This document shows positions 5,618 to 32,784 of a stretch of 53,102 nt of DNA, in pieces. The DNA lies in NCBI GenBank assembly GCA_021299035.1, contig JAJTGD010000026.1, positions 1 to 53,102 on the forward strand, written 5' to 3'. Under the pieces are notes generated by a model. The model had not been told where the DNA came from. It saw only the letters and a program-made list of their open reading frames with translations, and searched no databases. How positions within the stretch are numbered: the stretch's first letter is position 1; each line of letters starts with the position of its first letter. Source of the stretch: Oxalobacteraceae bacterium. GTDB lineage: Bacteria > Pseudomonadota > Gammaproteobacteria > Burkholderiales > Burkholderiaceae_D. The translations under genes and the position numbers were made by a program.

Positions 5618-6496
5618 ATGATCCAAGGCAGCATTGTCGCAATCGTGACGCCAATGTTCGAGGATGGCAGCCTCGATTTTCAAAGCTTGAAGGCGCTACT
5701 TGATTGGCACATCGCCGAAGGTACCGACGCGATTGTCATTGTCGGCACCACAGGTGAATCACCAACCGTCACAGTCGAAGAACATTGTGAGTTGATCAAG
5801 GTCGCGATCGAACATGTCGCCGGCCGCATTCCGGTGATCGCTGGCACCGGCGGTAACTCAACATCAGAAGCCATCGAACTTACGGCGTATGCCAAGCAGG
5901 CCGGTGCTGATGCTTCCTTGCAGGTGGTGCCTTACTACAACCGCCCGACACAAGACGGTATGGTGCAGCACTTCACACGCATCGCTGAGTCGGTGGATTT
6001 GCCAGTCATTCTGTATAACGTGCCCGGACGCACTGTTGCCGACATGAGTAACGACACCATCGTCCGACTGTCATCCGTACCAGGTATTGTGGGTGTTAAG
6101 GATGCGACCGGCAACATCGCGCGCGGTACCGAACTACTGCGTGCCGTGCCGAAATCGTTCGCGGTCTACTCGGGTGATGATGCGACCGCGATGGCGCTCA
6201 TGTTCTGCGGTGGTAAAGGAAATATCTCGGTCACTGCCAACGTGGCGCCACGCGCGATGCATGAACTTTGTGTTGCAGCGATGGCAGGTCAGGTGGCAGA
6301 GGCTGTCGCCATCAATGACAAACTAATCCCGCTACATAACCGGCTATTTGTCGAGCCAAATCCAGTGCCTGTGAAATGGGCACTACAGCAGATGGGGCGT
6401 ATTCAGAGCGGCATACGATTACCGCTGGTGCCGCTTGGTGCGGCTAGCCATGAATCGCTGCGCAGTGCGCTGCGCGAATCCGGCGTTCTGAACTGA
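5618..6496 (+). CDS. dapA: 4-hydroxy-tetrahydrodipicolinate synthase
   Basis: DapA condenses pyruvate with aspartate semialdehyde, the first committed step of the lysine/diaminopimelate branch. With the ATG at 5618 the protein is 292 residues, exactly the E. coli length, and active-site numbering matches: Thr44/Thr45 in GTTGES, Tyr107 in PYYNRP, Tyr133, Arg138 in NVPGR, and the Schiff-base Lys161 in GVKDATGN. A longer in-frame TTG start at 5594 was rejected. A TACAAT box at 5581-5586 is a likely -10. bamC follows after 33 bases, the same arrangement as dapA-bamC in E. coli. Confidence 0.97.
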
Positions 6497-26664: not shown

Positions 26665-27990
26665 ATGAAAGCATCTGTGATGAAACCGATCAGAGTCGGC
26701 ATACTGGGTATTGGTACCGTAGGTAGCGGCACCTTCAACGTATTGCGTCGTAATCAGGAAGAGATACGGCGTCGAGCGGGCAGGGCGATCGAGGTAGTGA
26801 TGGTGGCTGATCTGGATACCGAGCGCGCCAGGCAGGTCACCGGTGGCTCTGTTGAGATCGTGAGCGATGCGCGGCTGGTTGTTGCTCATCCCGACATCGA
26901 TATCGTGATCGAATTGATCGGTGGCGATGGTATCGCCCGTGAACTGATGATGACGGCGATCGCCAATGGCAAGCATGTCGTGACGGCGAACAAGGCACTG
27001 TTGGCCAAGCACGGTACTGAAATCTTTCGCGCCGCTGAAGAAAAAGGGGTGATGGTCGCCTTCGAGGCGGCTGTCGCGGGGGGTATTCCGATCATCAAAG
27101 CGCTGCGTGAGGGCTTGACTGCGAATCGCATACAGTGGATCGCCGGCATCATTAACGGCACCACCAACTTCATCTTGTCCGAGATGCGCGACAAAGGTCT
27201 CGACTTCGATGTCGTGCTGAAGCAGGCCCAAGCACTTGGTTATGCCGAAGCCGATCCGACCTTTGATATCGAAGGTGTCGACGCGGCGCACAAGGCAACC
27301 ATCATGTCCGCCATCGCTTTCGGGGTGCCGGTGCAGTTTGACAAGGCTCATGTCGAGGGCATTACCAAGCTGTCAGCAACCGACATCCGGTACGCCGAGC
27401 AACTCGGCTATCGAATCAAACTGCTCGGCATTGCACGTCGTGTCGAGGCCGGGATTGAGTTGCGAGTGCACCCCACGCTGATCCCGGCGACTCGACTGAT
27501 TGCCAATGTCGAGGGCGCCATGAACGCGGTACTGGTACAAGGCGATGCGGTAGGCGCGACACTCTACTACGGCAAAGGCGCTGGTTCAGAGCCCACCGCA
27601 TCTGCGGTGATCGCCGATCTGGTAGATATCACCCGCCTTGCCACTGCCGATCCTGAGCACCGGGTGCCCTACCTGGCCTTCCAGTCGAATCAGATGGCAG
27701 ATACGCCGATTCTTCCGATGTCGGAAGTCACCACCAGCTACTATCTACGAATGCGGGTCGCAGACAAACCGGGCGTGCTGGCTGACGTGACCCGGATCCT
27801 GGCAGATGCCTCGATCTCAATCGATGCCATGCTGCAGAAAGAAGCAGGTGAGGGCGAGACCCAAACCGACTTGATTATCCTGACGCATGAAACGAAAGAG
27901 AAGCAAGTCAACCGCGCCATCGATGCAATCGAAGACCTGAGCACAGTCGCTGGTAAAGTCCATAGGATCCGGCTTGAGCACCTCGGTTGA
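26665..27990 (+). CDS. hom: Homoserine dehydrogenase
   Basis: A 441-residue monofunctional homoserine dehydrogenase with a C-terminal ACT domain. The NAD(P)-binding start reads VGILGIGTVGSGT; the middle has IAGIINGTTNFILSEM and ALGYAEADPTFDIEGVDAAHK, the catalytic and substrate motifs. The ACT domain (about 350-435, MRVADKPGVLADVT) probably mediates threonine feedback. It reduces aspartate semialdehyde to homoserine for threonine and methionine. GAGGG precedes ATG 26665. In related bacteria alaA-hom-thrC are adjacent; here thrC is 3.3 kb downstream, split off by the secretion-like genes. Confidence 0.97.
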   Translation: MKASVMKPIRVGILGIGTVGSGTFNVLRRNQEEIRRRAGRAIEVVMVADLDTERARQVTGGSVEIVSDARLVVAHPDIDIVIELIGGDGIARELMMTAIANGKHVVTANKALLAKHGTEIFRAAEEKGVMVAFEAAVAGGIPIIKALREGLTANRIQWIAGIINGTTNFILSEMRDKGLDFDVVLKQAQALGYAEADPTFDIEGVDAAHKATIMSAIAFGVPVQFDKAHVEGITKLSATDIRYAEQLGYRIKLLGIARRVEAGIELRVHPTLIPATRLIANVEGAMNAVLVQGDAVGATLYYGKGAGSEPTASAVIADLVDITRLATADPEHRVPYLAFQSNQMADTPILPMSEVTTSYYLRMRVADKPGVLADVTRILADASISIDAMLQKEAGEGETQTDLIILTHETKEKQVNRAIDAIEDLSTVAGKVHRIRLEHLG

Positions 27991-28011: not shown

Positions 28012-28254
28012 TCAACCAATTTTTGCTGCGACGCCTTTCAGTGAATCAGACATTTCTTTAATAATGTTGGCGAAAGTCGTCGCAGTCACCGTATACCGGG
28101 CAATCAGATACTGCAAACGAAGTAACTGAGCGGTCGTCACCTCGCTGCCATCGTTGATGGCGCCAAGCTCTGTTCGTAATAAATCTTCGTTATCCCGCAT
28201 CTTCGGGTCAATTTTTTCGTAGATATTCTTCAGTCCGGTACTGGGCAGTGACAT
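28012..28254 (-). CDS. Type III secretion needle-like protein (SctF candidate)
   Basis: An 80-residue, mostly helical protein: two helices joined by a short turn around IARYTVT, with size and pattern of the YscF/PrgI/MxiH needle family (80-84 residues). The stretch LLRLQYLIARYTVTATTFANI resembles the LLAEYQ-x-LSEYNLYRNAQ block of needle proteins, and the C-terminus is amphipathic. Inner-rod SctI proteins look similar, so this alternative stays open. GGAGGA precedes the ATG. It is the last gene of a minus-strand run after the sctD-like and EscE-like genes, the same order as yscD-yscE-yscF, which favours SctF. Confidence 0.65.
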   Translation of the reverse strand: MSLPSTGLKNIYEKIDPKMRDNEDLLRTELGAINDGSEVTTAQLLRLQYLIARYTVTATTFANIIKEMSDSLKGVAAKIG

Positions 28255-28287
28255 GATTTCCTCCGTTGGGTGATGGGTGTTGACGAA

Positions 28288-28578
28288 TCAATGACGATCG
28301 TCTTGGCGTCCTGCGTGATATAGCTGCATCGCCAGGGCTGCAGCCTGTACCGCTTGTCGTGCTGCACTTAGCTGTCTGTGCTGCTCACTTGGTTTCATTT
28401 CACGGCCCTGTTGCTCAAGTCGACGTTCGAGTCGAGCAAGCGTGTCGTCTATCCTCTTGGGTAGTGACTCAGCATTTTTTTCAGAATCCTTACTTCCGTC
28501 CAAATAATGCGCCAAATCGGCGACCATATCGTCGGTAACGTCGACATAGTCGGTAGATTGGTTCATGTTTGCATTCAT
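28288..28578 (-). CDS. Small coiled-coil protein, EscE/YscE-like needle co-chaperone candidate
   Basis: A 96-residue acidic protein with ATG 28578 (AAAGG seven bases upstream). The first 45 residues are polar and probably flexible. The rest forms two helices: DTLARLERRLEQQG and QHRQLSAARQAVQAAALAMQLYHAG. The second half resembles YscE, a 66-residue co-chaperone that with YscG keeps the needle subunit monomeric. Its place between the sctD-like and sctF-like genes equals that of yscE. The similarity is in pattern only, so the call is tentative. The downstream sctF-like gene starts 33 bases later. Confidence 0.5.
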   Translation of the reverse strand: MNANMNQSTDYVDVTDDMVADLAHYLDGSKDSEKNAESLPKRIDDTLARLERRLEQQGREMKPSEQHRQLSAARQAVQAAALAMQLYHAGRQDDRH

Positions 28579-28597
28579 GGTCGAACCTTTCAATCAT

Positions 28598-29968
28598 TCA
28601 TCGAGGTAATCGATAACGAAGCGTGCCATCAAAAATAACCTCATCATCCCGAATGGCAGTGATGGTGTGGCCATTGGCTTCGCCACCCACGCCAAGTCGT
28701 TGGCCGGTGTCAGTAATAACAAAAGGCATCGCACCACTGACGACAGTTTGAATATTGATTGGAGGACGTTTTTGCTGCACAGTGATCATGGCGCGGATAG
28801 GCAATAGTTGACCGAACTCTTCATCAAACTGAACTAGTAGTTTTTCCCAGCGTCGTAATTCCTCCTCGGTCAGACTGCCTCGTACCGTAAATTCGGGTTG
28901 CTTCGACAAAATCTGAAATTTTTTTGATAGGTCAGCAACGTTCAGTCGATCAGAAAGCAGTGAGGGTAACTCCTCAGTGGTTTGAAGTGATGCATCAACA
29001 CTTCTCAGTCCGGGCACTACCGATCGTAAGTTTTCAAGTAGCTCATCTCGTGCTACTTTCGAAACCACAACGCCACGAAGGTTGGGTACGCCATTTTTCA
29101 GATCGACTATCTGCACCATGGCGCGCGTGCCTTCTTGGCGGTACTTTTGTACCACCGTAGTTGCACTTTCCAGCATCGCATCATCTTGGTAAATCTGAGT
29201 GACCGCTGTGTTGTCATATTTGCGAATCAGCATCTGCATGCGATTAGCCATGGCTTTATCGCTTGCATAGGCAGTCACTTGAAGTACGCCACCATTTCGG
29301 GAAGTCACTCGTATTTCTCGGCCAGGGAAAGCCTCGGTCAGGCGCTCACTAAGCGTGCCACTAGCGTTGGACTCAGTGTTTTGTGCGACAAGCTCGTTGT
29401 CACTATGCGCAGGCTGATTGACCAGCCATAAAGCGCCAGCAATACCAAGAACAGCAATGGTGGCGAGTCCGGTCAACGAGAAAATCAGTACGCGCCTTGC
29501 CCGTGCACGTTGCGATATGAGATCGGTCTCTTCTTGCGTAAGTGGCGCTTCATGAAACGTTGCCGCTGAGGTTTCCGCTACCGCGGGTGATGCTGGCGCA
29601 GGACTCGGTTGGGGAATCAGCGCCTCAGTCGATGGCCATGGTGCATCCACCTCGTCGATACTGATCCAGATGCCACCCAGTTCCACCGGCATGCCGAGCG
29701 CGAGTGGGGCATCCTCAGAAATCGGACTGCCATGCGCATCGAGCACACCACCATCAACAGGGCTAATGGATGCCAGATCACCGTCGATTTTGAGTTTCGC
29801 GTGCGTGCCCTTCAATCGTGGGCCAGCGAGCATCACATCGCATTCATCGTCGGTACCGAGCAGATACTCACCGACAGAGAGAGTCAGGCGGCTACCAGAT
29901 TGCGGGCCATGTAGCACCCGCAATTCCAGTTGAGGCAGCAAAGTCTCTAGATGTGGCTCAATTTTCAT
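28598..29968 (-). CDS. sctD: Type III secretion inner-membrane ring protein SctD
   Basis: A 456-residue bitopic membrane protein with the SctD build: a cytoplasmic FHA-like domain (about 12-108, GPQSGSRLTL, GEYLLGTDDECDVML), a Pro/Ala linker, one membrane helix (159-183, after the basic RARARR) and a periplasmic part with ring-building/BON-like modules (about 205-390). In YscD/CdsD this protein forms the outer of the two inner-membrane rings. GGAGG precedes the ATG. The gene is visibly AT-richer than hom and thrC around it, which suggests transfer. It reads away from the STAS gene, with 69 bases between starts. Confidence 0.82.
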   Translation of the reverse strand: MKIEPHLETLLPQLELRVLHGPQSGSRLTLSVGEYLLGTDDECDVMLAGPRLKGTHAKLKIDGDLASISPVDGGVLDAHGSPISEDAPLALGMPVELGGIWISIDEVDAPWPSTEALIPQPSPAPASPAVAETSAATFHEAPLTQEETDLISQRARARRVLIFSLTGLATIAVLGIAGALWLVNQPAHSDNELVAQNTESNASGTLSERLTEAFPGREIRVTSRNGGVLQVTAYASDKAMANRMQMLIRKYDNTAVTQIYQDDAMLESATTVVQKYRQEGTRAMVQIVDLKNGVPNLRGVVVSKVARDELLENLRSVVPGLRSVDASLQTTEELPSLLSDRLNVADLSKKFQILSKQPEFTVRGSLTEEELRRWEKLLVQFDEEFGQLLPIRAMITVQQKRPPINIQTVVSGAMPFVITDTGQRLGVGGEANGHTITAIRDDEVIFDGTLRYRLPR

Positions 29969-30037
29969 AAGCCTCCAGCAAGAACTTTCGTCTTTGACAC
30001 GCTACAATCCCGGAAACAATGAAAATTCTTTATTTGC

Positions 30038-30400
30038 ATGCACATACAATCTGAATCGCATGGCACCCTCTTCGTTGTACGACCCGAGGGTGACATCAGT
30101 AACGCGGCGGCGACAGAACTCGATGAACTGCTCGAGGCAGCCATTGATGATGGCGCGCGACTCATGGTGTTTGACTGCACCGGGCTCTCGCATATTTCCA
30201 GTGATGGTTTGCGGGTATTGCTGAAGACTCTACGCCGCTTGCGTGATACCGACGGTCGGGCCGTGCTGGCTGCAACGGGTGACAAGGTTCGTAGTGTTCT
30301 CGAGGTAAGCGGCCTGATGGCACTGATTGAAGAATACGATTCCCCTGAAGCCGCTGTCGCCGCGCTGACCGGCGGGCACGGCCATCCGAACGCGCACTGA
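30038..30400 (+). CDS. STAS-domain protein (anti-sigma factor antagonist type)
   Basis: A 120-residue single STAS domain. The start LFVVRPEGDISNAAATELDELL and the motif FDCTGLSHISSDGLRVLL (about 45-62) fit SpoIIAA/RsbV-like anti-anti-sigma factors. In SpoIIAA the motif is DSSG and its second Ser is phosphorylated; here the aligned residue is Asp56 (ISSDG), so normal kinase control may be lost or bypassed. Ser54 and Ser55 remain beside it. No anti-sigma kinase is adjacent. A TACAAT box (30003-30008) may be its -10. It is divergent from sctD and converges with the sigma-like gene. Confidence 0.85.
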   Translation: MHIQSESHGTLFVVRPEGDISNAAATELDELLEAAIDDGARLMVFDCTGLSHISSDGLRVLLKTLRRLRDTDGRAVLAATGDKVRSVLEVSGLMALIEEYDSPEAAVAALTGGHGHPNAH

Positions 30401-30443
30401 CCCTGGCGGTCGTTTTCCACAGAAACATGGCGATCCGCCCAGT

Positions 30444-30971
30444 TCACAGTTCGACCCTCGCAAGCGGTTGGATATTGACCTCCGGCGTTAACTCCTGATA
30501 CGAGAGTACCGGCAACTCGTACAAGTCTTGTTCTATCATCTTGCGCAAATAATTTCTCACCATGTTCATCGCGATTCCAAACAGCCAGGTAGATAGTTTC
30601 GAATCACCGCGGAAAGTGGCAATCGTTCGGGCCGCTTCAGCAAAGGCTTGCTGCGTGATATCCGCCGCATCATCTGGATGATCGATGTACTTGATCACAA
30701 AGCGGTAGAGCCGCCGCTGATGTTGAGCGATCAATTCTCTGAACAAAGCCTCCTGATTTAGCTGAAATGGTGCCAGTTCGGGAGAGGACTCGAGGACAGA
30801 GGGTTTGGATGGAGAAGCAACTGGTTCTGGCTGAACTTCGGTGTCGATCTCTGCGGAGTTTTCATCCAACGCAAATTCGTCCGGTTCCTCTTGGTCTTCA
30901 TTGTTAAAAAGATCGAAGTAGAAAACTGACTCGGCTTGTGCGTCGATTGTCTCGGTTTGAATCTCGTTCAT
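30444..30971 (-). CDS. Sigma-70 region 2 protein lacking region 4 (ECF-like, truncated)
   Basis: A 175-residue protein from ATG 30971 (AAGGAG eight bases upstream). Residues 1-70 are strongly acidic and disordered. Residues 76-144 are a clear ECF-type region 2: [34 protein letters not shown], then [24 protein letters not shown]. After it only about 30 residues follow before the stop; there is no region 4 helix-turn-helix for -35 binding. The next 44 bases lead to the end of the convergent STAS gene, so no region 4 follows in another frame. It could be a functional region-2-only regulator, an anti-sigma decoy or a decayed sigma factor. Confidence 0.75.
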
Positions 30972-31292: not shown

Positions 31293-31323
31293 TGAAGGCT
31301 TTGATCCGTTGAAACCACGCGCA

Positions 31324-32784
31324 ATGCGTTACTTGTCGACTCGAGGCCACCCCTCCACCCCCGGTTTTTCTGACATCCTGCTTGGCGGCCTTGCCCCGGA
31401 CGGCGGTCTGTATCTGCCCGAGCGTTATCCGCAAGTATCTGGGCAAGAGCTAGACGCCTGGCGCAAGCTACCCTATGCGGCACTGGCGGCGGAGGTGCTG
31501 AAAAAATTTGCTACCGACATCCCACCCGCTGATATTGAAGCGCTGACTGCCAAGACCTACACGGCAGCGGTTTACTGCAATGGCCGCCGCGATGAGGATG
31601 CCAGCCAGATCACACCGCTTCGCCTGCTGGAGCAAAATGCGGGTCGGCGCTTGCTCCTGCAGTCGCTGTCGAATGGTCCGACGCTCGCGTTCAAAGACAT
31701 GGCGATGCAATTGCTCGGCAACTTGTTCGAGTACACATTGAAGCGTCAGGCAGTTGAGCTGAATATTTTCGGTGCTACCTCCGGTGACACCGGTAGCGCC
31801 GCCGAATACGCCATGCGTGGCAAGCAGGGAATTCGGGTGTTCATGCTGTCGCCGCATCTGAAGATGAGTTCGTTCCAGACGTCGCAGATGTTCAGTCTGC
31901 AAGACCCGAATATTTTCAATATTGCGGTCAATGGCGTGTTCGATGACTGCCAAGACATGGTAAAGGCAGTGTCGAATGATCTTGATTTCAAAGCCAGGCA
32001 AAAAATCGGTACGGTCAACTCGATCAACTGGGCGCGTGTCGTCGCTCAGGTCATTTACTACTTCCGTGGCTACCTGGCCGCGACGCAGCATAATCAGCAG
32101 CAGGTCTCTTTCACCGTACCGTCCGGTAACTTCGGCAATATCTGCGCTGGCCATATTGCGCGCATGATGGGTCTGCCAATTCGCAAGCTGATTGTTGCGA
32201 CCAACGAAAACGATGTACTGCATGAGTTTTTCCAAACCGGCAGTTACCGTGTACGTAAATCTTCAGAGACGCTGCATACGAGTAGCCCAAGTATGGATAT
32301 CAGCAAGGCCTCGAACTTCGAGCGTTTTGTCTACGACCTGCTTGGGGGCGATGCAGCGCGGGTTGCCGCGCTGTTCAAGAAAGTCGAGACCCATGGCGGT
32401 TTTGATTTATCGGGTCGCGCTGGCAGTGATGGTGATGAGTTTTCGCGTGTAGATCAATTTGGCTTTGCTTCTGGCAAGTCCACTCACACAGATCGATTGA
32501 ATACGATTCGCGACGCAGATGCGCGCTACCAGATCACGATCGATACACATACCGCTGATGGCGTGAAGGTCGCGCGTGAGTACTGGGAGCCTGAGGTACC
32601 CATGATCGTGCTGGAGACCGCTTTGCCGGCGAAATTCAATGAGACCATCCGTGAGGCATTGGGCCGTGATGCCGAGCGCCCGGCAGGCTTTGAGCATATT
32701 GAATCACTGCCGCAGCGTTTTGATGTCATGGCACCCGATGTCGCCGAAATCAAGCGCTATATCGCGCAGCATACGGGTCTCTGA
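31324..32784 (+). CDS. thrC: Threonine synthase
   Basis: A 486-residue PLP enzyme of the long (class II, fungal/proteobacterial) threonine synthase type, converting phosphohomoserine to threonine. It starts MRYLSTRG at ATG 31324, the typical family start. The PLP lysine is Lys124 in PTLAFKDMAMQLLG; the pyridoxal ring/phosphate motifs are ATSGDTGSAA and VPSGNFGNICAG. It completes the hom-thrC pathway interrupted by the secretion-like genes upstream. moeA follows 43 bases later. Confidence 0.97.
   Translation: MRYLSTRGHPSTPGFSDILLGGLAPDGGLYLPERYPQVSGQELDAWRKLPYAALAAEVLKKFATDIPPADIEALTAKTYTAAVYCNGRRDEDASQITPLRLLEQNAGRRLLLQSLSNGPTLAFKDMAMQLLGNLFEYTLKRQAVELNIFGATSGDTGSAAEYAMRGKQGIRVFMLSPHLKMSSFQTSQMFSLQDPNIFNIAVNGVFDDCQDMVKAVSNDLDFKARQKIGTVNSINWARVVAQVIYYFRGYLAATQHNQQQVSFTVPSGNFGNICAGHIARMMGLPIRKLIVATNENDVLHEFFQTGSYRVRKSSETLHTSSPSMDISKASNFERFVYDLLGGDAARVAALFKKVETHGGFDLSGRAGSDGDEFSRVDQFGFASGKSTHTDRLNTIRDADARYQITIDTHTADGVKVAREYWEPEVPMIVLETALPAKFNETIREALGRDAERPAGFEHIESLPQRFDVMAPDVAEIKRYIAQHTGL

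What the first reader, a model, noticed from the sequence alone, without database searches (positions are those of the whole stretch)
28012..30971. Isolated type III secretion sctD-(escE-like)-sctF module with STAS and sigma-like regulators
Three minus-strand genes have the build and order of yscD-yscE-yscF, yet no ATPase, export gate, secretin or other apparatus gene is present within 25 kb. They split the hom-thrC pathway genes, are AT-richer than both sides, and are flanked by an anti-anti-sigma protein and a sigma region 2 protein. This looks like an acquired, split or minimal secretion locus with its own partner-switching control, rather than a standard island.
Basis: partly seen in the sequence, partly recalled or inferred. 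Interest (0 to 1): 0.85.

Follow-up and report, generated by a model that had tools for sequence, protein, structure and literature searches.

The report
Collapsed short form of injectisome island
In a genus of uncultured, mostly freshwater bacteria, a 30-kilobase molecular-syringe gene island occurs either whole or collapsed, and the collapsed copies join the same two genes at the same codon; this window holds a collapsed copy whose leftover genes are, surprisingly, still intact.

Summary
The genome has no SctV, SctN or SctC above cut-off. But this is not a minimal or split acquired system. A near relative (G016) carries a complete Ysc-type T3SS at the same hom-thrC site, about 29.5 kb longer. 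The "sigma region 2 protein" is the 5' part of that island's ECF sigma gene fused in frame to the last 34 codons of sctV: one internal deletion. Ten of 21 genomes of this unnamed Oxalobacteraceae genus carry the fusion, all at the same codon; an eleventh joins that same sigma codon to the SctF tail. Fusion genomes are interleaved with full-island genomes (7 losses on both trees if loss is irreversible; 6 if one weak node is wrong). Yet sctD/E/F, STAS and the fusion are open and under purifying selection, and in two assemblies a contig stops at, or one base before, the junction. Best reading: the short allele of a long-lived short/long T3SS dimorphism. One origin plus recombination, or repeated precise excision, is unresolved; no recombinase, clear DNA site or reciprocal junction was found.

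The parts
28012..28254 (-). sctF, needle subunit (80 aa)
   Evidence: PF09392 E 1.2e-5, under the cut-off; 11 of 11 aligned SctF proteins match; 98.75% identical to SctF of the complete island in G016
28288..28593 (-). sctE, EscE/YscE-like needle co-chaperone (101 aa)
   Evidence: profile of 14 relatives matches EscE/YscE chains, E 6.5e-7; PF08988 in 5 of 14; model pLDDT 72.9 ranks EscE chains 2, 3 and 5 but with E about 2
28598..29968 (-). sctD, inner membrane ring protein (456 aa)
   Evidence: TIGR02500 117.6 bits, cut-off 86
30038..30400 (+). STAS-domain protein, divergent from sctD
   Evidence: PF01740 E 9.9e-16; TIGR00377 67 bits, cut-off 53.45; same place in 14 genomes
30444..30548 (-). 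last 34 codons and stop of sctV, fused to the sigma gene
   Evidence: TIGR01399 positions 641-677 of 677; DNA aligns to the sctV 3' end of G016
30549..30551 (-). junction: Tyr codon TAT present in both parent genes (3 bp of microhomology)
30549..30971 (-). 5' part of the ECF sigma gene, acidic N-terminus plus region 2; region 4 is lost (ORF is open from 31097)
   Evidence: PF04542 E 4.2e-14; 97% identical over residues 1-186 to the 286-aa sigma of G016
26665..27990 (+). hom, left flank (not part of the island)
   Evidence: Pfam
31309..32784 (+). thrC, right flank (not part of the island)
   Evidence: Pfam

Best explanation
The locus is the short (S) allele of a Ysc-type T3SS island that sits between hom and thrC in this genus and occurs in a long (L) and a short form. 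SHOWN by comparison: L carries sctF-sctE-sctD, STAS, sctV, yscX, translocator-like, sctI, sctJ, sctK, sctL, sctN, yscO, sctQ, sctR, sctC and other genes, and a full ECF sigma gene at the thrC end. S lacks everything between the sigma gene's Tyr codon at the end of region 2 and the matching Tyr codon 35 residues from the end of sctV, which leaves one open fusion gene. INFERRED: a cell with S cannot build an injectisome (no export gate, ATPase or secretin), and because the sigma factor has lost region 4 the island's own activator is off, so S is a cost-free OFF state. S does not decay because both forms persist in these lineages: the flanking genes keep returning to an L background, through recombination with L cells or through renewed loss from L. 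How S arises is not settled: one old deletion spread and kept by homologous recombination, or repeated deletion at one point.
For: Complete island at the same site in G016, whose hom and thrC are 99.5% and 97% identical to ours. Fusion DNA matches sigma up to AATTAT and sctV from TAT on. Fusion in 10 of 21 genus genomes, full SctV above cut-off in 4 of 21, never both; SctC and SctN above cut-off in 0 of 10 S genomes. Same codon in 10 of 10. S and L interleave: 7 S clades without L on both trees. Sigma and sctV parts on either side of the junction follow species, not S/L state (p 0.26 to 0.81). Purifying selection in four S-S pairs: sctD dN/dS 0.08 to 0.20; tail 0, 2, 0 and 6.5 non-synonymous changes against 2, 14, 9 and 23.5 synonymous; S branches no more relaxed than L branches in two S/L pairs. 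Contig C33 of G020 ends exactly at the junction and C62 of G019 one base before it, each overlapping the fusion contig by 121 and 114 identical bases, as expected if the assembly graph forks there.
Against: No reads were seen; both forms in one sample is inferred from contig ends, and the other branch is not in either bin. There is no matching contig break on the sctV-tail side, which a plain S/L mixture with identical tails should give. The G000-G016 tail differs more at synonymous sites (dS 0.58) than sctD (0.15), sigma (0.08) or hom (0.11), and 30365-30464 is only 70% identical: the right side of the junction looks older or imported there, but in the G018-G002 pair the tail is less diverged than its neighbours. 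All genus genomes seem to be metagenome bins (titles). Purifying selection would also fit an S module with a job of its own.
Confidence: 0.6

Rival explanations
1. Repeated precise excision: a site-specific process joins the sigma gene's region 2 end to a Tyr codon in sctV (in G014, to sctF), in each lineage anew and perhaps reversibly, in the manner of developmentally excised elements that interrupt sigma genes.
For: Same sigma codon in 11 of 11 fusions, with two different partners (sctV in 10, sctF in G014). Interleaving implies 7 S events plus one F event under irreversible loss. The first codon after the junction follows the clade (Leu in G000, G016, G001, G009; Met or Ile in the others), also between S and L. 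Microhomology is only 3 bp, while 57 of 7200 in-frame pairs tested in G016 have 5 bp or more, so plain microhomology would not choose this point each time.
Against: No recombinase among the 30 G016 island proteins scanned (SctS, SctT, SctU not scanned). Synonymous sites left of the junction are as free as elsewhere in the gene (relative entropy 0.81 against 0.82 to 0.86, 18 sequences), though those of the first 10 codons on the sigma right side are somewhat lower (0.57 against 0.72, only 7 sequences). Reciprocal junction in 0 of 21 genomes. No SctV relative found in IMG/VR.
Confidence: 0.2
2. The short module works by itself: SctD, SctE, SctF and STAS, with the sigma2-SctV-tail protein as a regulator or decoy, keep a function without an injectisome, perhaps using the flagellar export gate.
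For: All island genes seen in S genomes are open: sctD in 10 of 10 (some cut by contig ends), sctE and sctF in 9 of 10 (G018's contig stops before them), STAS in 10 of 10; selection as, including the tail; a flagellar cluster is present.
Against: No known role of needle and ring proteins without gate, ATPase and secretin. G014 has lost sctD and sctE. The tail is kept as SctV sequence, which fits return to L better than a new role. The AlphaFold model of the fusion is uninformative (pLDDT 45.9).
Confidence: 0.1
3. Ordinary recent decay: independent T3SS losses too young for the leftovers to have decayed.
For: Deletion of costly secretion systems is common; S branches in the two S/L sister pairs are short.
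Against: Independent losses would not share one codon; S-S pairs with synonymous divergence of about 0.4 to 1 keep open genes at low dN/dS.
Confidence: 0.08
4. Assembly artefact.
For: All genus genomes seem to be metagenome bins; contigs often end inside sctD (G001, G002, G013).
Against: Ten genomes with sequences diverged by species, deposited under many different isolate names, share the join, in frame; the window's contig crosses it with 30 kb and 22 kb on its two sides.
Confidence: 0.02

Closest known systems
Complete Ysc-type T3SS islands of Oxalobacteraceae (G016 here; Noviherbaspirillum suwonense, N. pedocola, Paucimonas, Lacisediminimonas and Herminiimonas records)
   Same: Orthologous genes; a full-length relative of the same ECF sigma factor lies beside sctL-sctK-sctJ in the non-genus records
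   Different: They are complete where seen; none of the non-genus loci reaches the SctV tail in the match
Bordetella bsc/btr T3SS
   Same: ECF sigma BtrS, STAS protein BtrV, and a gene cluster running from bcrD (SctV) to bscF (passages of PMC7498569)
   Different: Bordetella has BtrU and BtrW and no collapse of the island; here no kinase or phosphatase was found in the island
Pseudomonas viridiflava S-PAI / T-PAI presence/absence polymorphism
   Same: Long-lived T3SS island polymorphism in one bacterium (passages of the review PMC8659605; Araki et al. 2006 itself not read)
   Different: There each strain has one of two working islands; here one form lacks the apparatus and carries a fixed in-frame scar
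sigK/skin element of Bacillus subtilis (recalled, no call)
   Same: A large DNA segment bounded inside a sigma factor gene, joined precisely
   Different: There excision makes the sigma gene whole by a known recombinase; here the join truncates sigma and no recombinase was found

Membership tests
SctD (inner membrane ring protein) | TIGR02500 over curated cut-off | tested here: met
   117.6 bits against 86
SctF (needle) | PF09392 or TIGR02105 over curated cut-off | tested here: not met
   25.8 against 29.4 and 15.2 against 41.7; identity rests on E 1.2e-5, 11 of 11 relatives matching PF09392 and gene order; no PDB match for the profile at E<=0.01
SctE/YscE/EscE (co-chaperone) | sequence match to PF08988 or to solved EscE/YscE | tested here: inconclusive
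   window protein alone none; 5 of 14 relatives match PF08988; family profile to EscE E 6.5e-7; Foldseek E about 2
Working non-flagellar T3SS | SctV, SctN and SctC encoded in the genome | tested here: not met
   none over cut-off in G000, a bin 95% complete; SctJ, R, S, T, U not searched genome-wide
ECF sigma factor | regions 2 and 4 | tested here: not met
   region 2 present (PF04542); region 4 replaced by the SctV tail; full in 7 of 21 genus genomes
Partner-switching module (Rsb/Btr type) | STAS protein with HATPase kinase and PP2C-type phosphatase | tested here: inconclusive
   STAS met; no kinase or phosphatase among 30 G016 island proteins; genome not searched
Site-specifically excised element | recurrent exact junction | tested here: met
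   same sigma codon in 11 of 11 fusions
Site-specifically excised element | recombinase gene in the element | tested here: not met
   none among 30 proteins of the G016 island
Site-specifically excised element | DNA site conserved beyond the protein code | tested here: inconclusive
   no excess synonymous conservation left of the junction or in the tail; a lower value in 10 codons on the sigma right side from 7 sequences
Site-specifically excised element | reciprocal (circle) junction | tested here: not met
   0 of 21 genomes, up to 2 mismatches; reads not available
Island presence/absence polymorphism | both alleles at one site in one population | tested here: inconclusive
   same site in sister species; contig ends at the junction in G019 and G020; no reads

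The most novel reading that the evidence does not exclude
Cells of this genus remove their injectisome island precisely and repeatedly: about 30 kb is cut from the end of sigma region 2 to a fixed Tyr codon near the end of sctV, which at one stroke removes the secretion apparatus and disables its sigma factor, perhaps reversibly and as a bet-hedging switch.
Probability: 0.2. Interest if true: 0.85.

Novelty: new variant of a known kind. Interest (0 to 1): 0.6.

Why it matters
Secretion-system loss is usually seen as scattered decay. Here a whole genus shows either a complete island or a collapsed one with a single scar, and the leftovers are kept by selection. That makes a testable case for a T3SS ON/OFF dimorphism in uncultured bacteria, and for how a presence/absence allele can cross speciation events. 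It also warns annotators that sctD-sctF neighbours, or a 'sigma region 2 protein', can be the stub of an island that relatives carry whole.

Tried and rejected
Rejected: (1) a minimal or acquired secretion system: a close relative has the whole island at this site. (2) A T3SS elsewhere in the genome: SctV hits are FlhA of a flagellar cluster, SctN hit is below cut-off, SctC hits are below cut-off. (3) Partner switching: no kinase or phosphatase in the island proteins scanned. (4) T3SS core as a free or viral element: no SctV relative in IMG/VR; best plasmid SctV matches are under 60% identity. Led nowhere: AlphaFold of the fusion (pLDDT 45.9); Foldseek of SctE, 0 matches at E<=0.001; PDB search with the SctF profile, none; DNA similarity of the locus to plasmids, only hom and thrC regions as far as the listing shows; paper searches for such a locus (PMC subset only) listed nothing that described it in the titles and abstract starts shown; this is not proof that none is in print.
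Full report
What is there. The three minus-strand genes are sctF, sctE and sctD, with a STAS gene divergent from sctD. The 'sigma region 2 protein' on the minus strand matches Sigma70_r2 and, over its last residues, the extreme C-terminus of SctV (TIGR01399 positions 641-677 of 677). The own genome (2.58 Mb, 80 contigs, 95% complete) has no other SctV-like gene than a frameshift-split FlhA inside a flagellar cluster on C18, and no SctC or SctN above cut-off.

Where it comes from. Of 56 genomes searched (own genus, family, order), 16 have a SctD match: 15 of the 21 genus members and one other. In the genus, where contigs reach, the locus lies between hom and thrC. G016, whose Hom and ThrC are 99.5% and 97% identical to ours, has at this site a complete Ysc-type T3SS: SctF, E, D, STAS, SctV, YscX, TPR chaperone-like proteins, SseC-like translocator, SctI, J, K, L, CesT-type chaperones, TyeA, SctN, YscO, SctQ, SctR, SctC, a GNAT-domain protein, and a 286-aa ECF sigma factor next to thrC (labels SctT, SctU and YscY are by place and homology, not by a model). 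The fusion gene of the window aligns with that sigma gene up to AATTAT and with the sctV 3' end from TAT on; by the coordinates about 29.5 kb is missing between. The short form is therefore a deletion from the long form. Full-length relatives of the sigma factor beside T3SS genes in other Oxalobacteraceae agree with that direction.

The same join in ten genomes. TIGR01399 over the 21 genus genomes gives full SctV above cut-off in 4 (G002, G008, G012, G016) and the bare tail in 10 (G000, G001, G003, G004, G006, G009, G017, G018, G019, G020), never both. A full sigma gene is present in 7 (G002, G005, G007, G008, G010, G012, G016; the stop codons flagged for G005 and G012 lie before the likely start). 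In all ten fusions the join follows the same Tyr codon...MNMVRNY then [LMI]RK[ML]IEQDLYEL. In G014 the same sigma codon is joined in frame to the SctF C-terminus (QMARYTVTATVFSAIIKEVSDSLK...), and sctD and sctE are gone. G011 is counted as long by its SctN alone; G013 and G015 cannot be scored.

Phylogeny. A gyrB+parE+hom+thrC tree and a gyrB+parE tree place G000 (S) beside G016 (L), G018 (S) beside G002 (L), and G003+G004 (S) near G011 and G008 (L). With loss irreversible, both trees need 7 S events and one for G014; Fitch parsimony gives 7 changes (G013 and G015 left out). The node that separates G006 from G019 has support 33 in the first tree; were they sisters the count would be 6. Several deep nodes are also weak (41 to 66). 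On either side of the junction, sequences follow species: S-versus-L excess distance is near zero (p 0.26 to 0.81, 17 sequences left, 14 right).

Selection. In four S-S pairs sctD has dN/dS 0.08 to 0.20 (dS saturated in one), STAS 0.05 to 0.11 in three (dS saturated in the fourth), sctE 0.18 to 0.31, sctF 0.13 to 0.41 in three; sigma region 2 has 0.01 to 0.04 where dS can be computed; the tail has 0, 2, 0 and 6.5 non-synonymous against 2, 14, 9 and 23.5 synonymous changes. In two S/L sister pairs, changes placed on the S branch are no more often non-synonymous than on the L branch (sctD 5:10 against 4:13 with 29 unplaced, and 10:31 against 11:17). Island genes in S genomes are open: sctD and STAS 10 of 10, sctE and sctF 9 of 10, G018's contig ending before them.

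Hints of both forms in one sample. Among the ends of 22 fetched loci three exact overlaps were found: G002 C37/C39 inside sctD (119 bases), G020 C33/C121 (121) and G019 C62/C52 (114). C33 ends exactly at the junction, C62 one base before it. A fork in the assembly graph at the junction is the natural reading. The other branch is not in the bins, and there is no matching break on the tail side, so what the other branch is (L, or another fusion) is not known.

Mechanism of loss. Microhomology at the join is 3 bp; of 7200 in-frame pairs tested in G016, 431 have 3 or more and 57 have 5 or more, so the point is not the best one for slippage. Synonymous sites left of the junction are ordinary (0.81 against 0.82 to 0.86), the tail likewise; on the sigma right side the first 10 codons are lower than the average (0.57 against 0.72, 7 sequences), a weak sign for a DNA site that I do not weigh much. 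No recombinase among 30 island proteins, no reciprocal junction in 21 genomes. One old deletion that recombination has re-embedded in each species' flanks up to the heterology boundary would need no enzyme; G014, with the same sigma codon but another partner, speaks for a site-bound process. I leave this open.

How it works. Inferred: the long form makes a Ysc-type injectisome under its own ECF sigma; the short form has neither gate, ATPase, secretin nor a complete sigma and so is OFF. In Bordetella, BtrS and BtrV are an ECF sigma and a STAS protein of the same kind of system (passages of PMC7498569). A dimorphism of T3SS islands is on record for Pseudomonas viridiflava (passages of PMC8659605). 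Selection on the leftovers is explained if they keep returning to the long background. Whether S has a job of its own is untested.

Noticed in passing
G000:C18; L024 10417-12403: The own genome's flhA is split in two ORFs by an apparent frameshift (assembly error or real); FlhA is in two pieces in G009 too.
   Followed up: no
L042 17183-19318 (G016): A 711-aa protein with a GNAT acetyltransferase domain follows sctC; relatives stand at the same place in Noviherbaspirillum and Paucimonas islands. Conserved but unexplained.
   Followed up: partly
L052 about 5653-6189 (G014): Sigma region 2 fused to the SctF C-terminal half at the same sigma codon, with sctD, sctE and STAS gone: a further reduced form.
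   Followed up: partly
G007:C105 and C22; C108 and C51: Two full FlhA-like genes and two flagellar-type ATPases below the T3SS cut-offs: perhaps a second flagellar system.
   Followed up: no
L023 7781-10138: A 785-aa ORF with an HEIGHALGLSH metalloprotease-like motif (recalled) upstream of the flagellar cluster.
   Followed up: no
window 30401-30443: Between the STAS and fusion stops lie only 43 bases; the 100-base bin 30365-30464 is just 70% identical to G016 while most bins of the locus are 90% or more.
   Followed up: no
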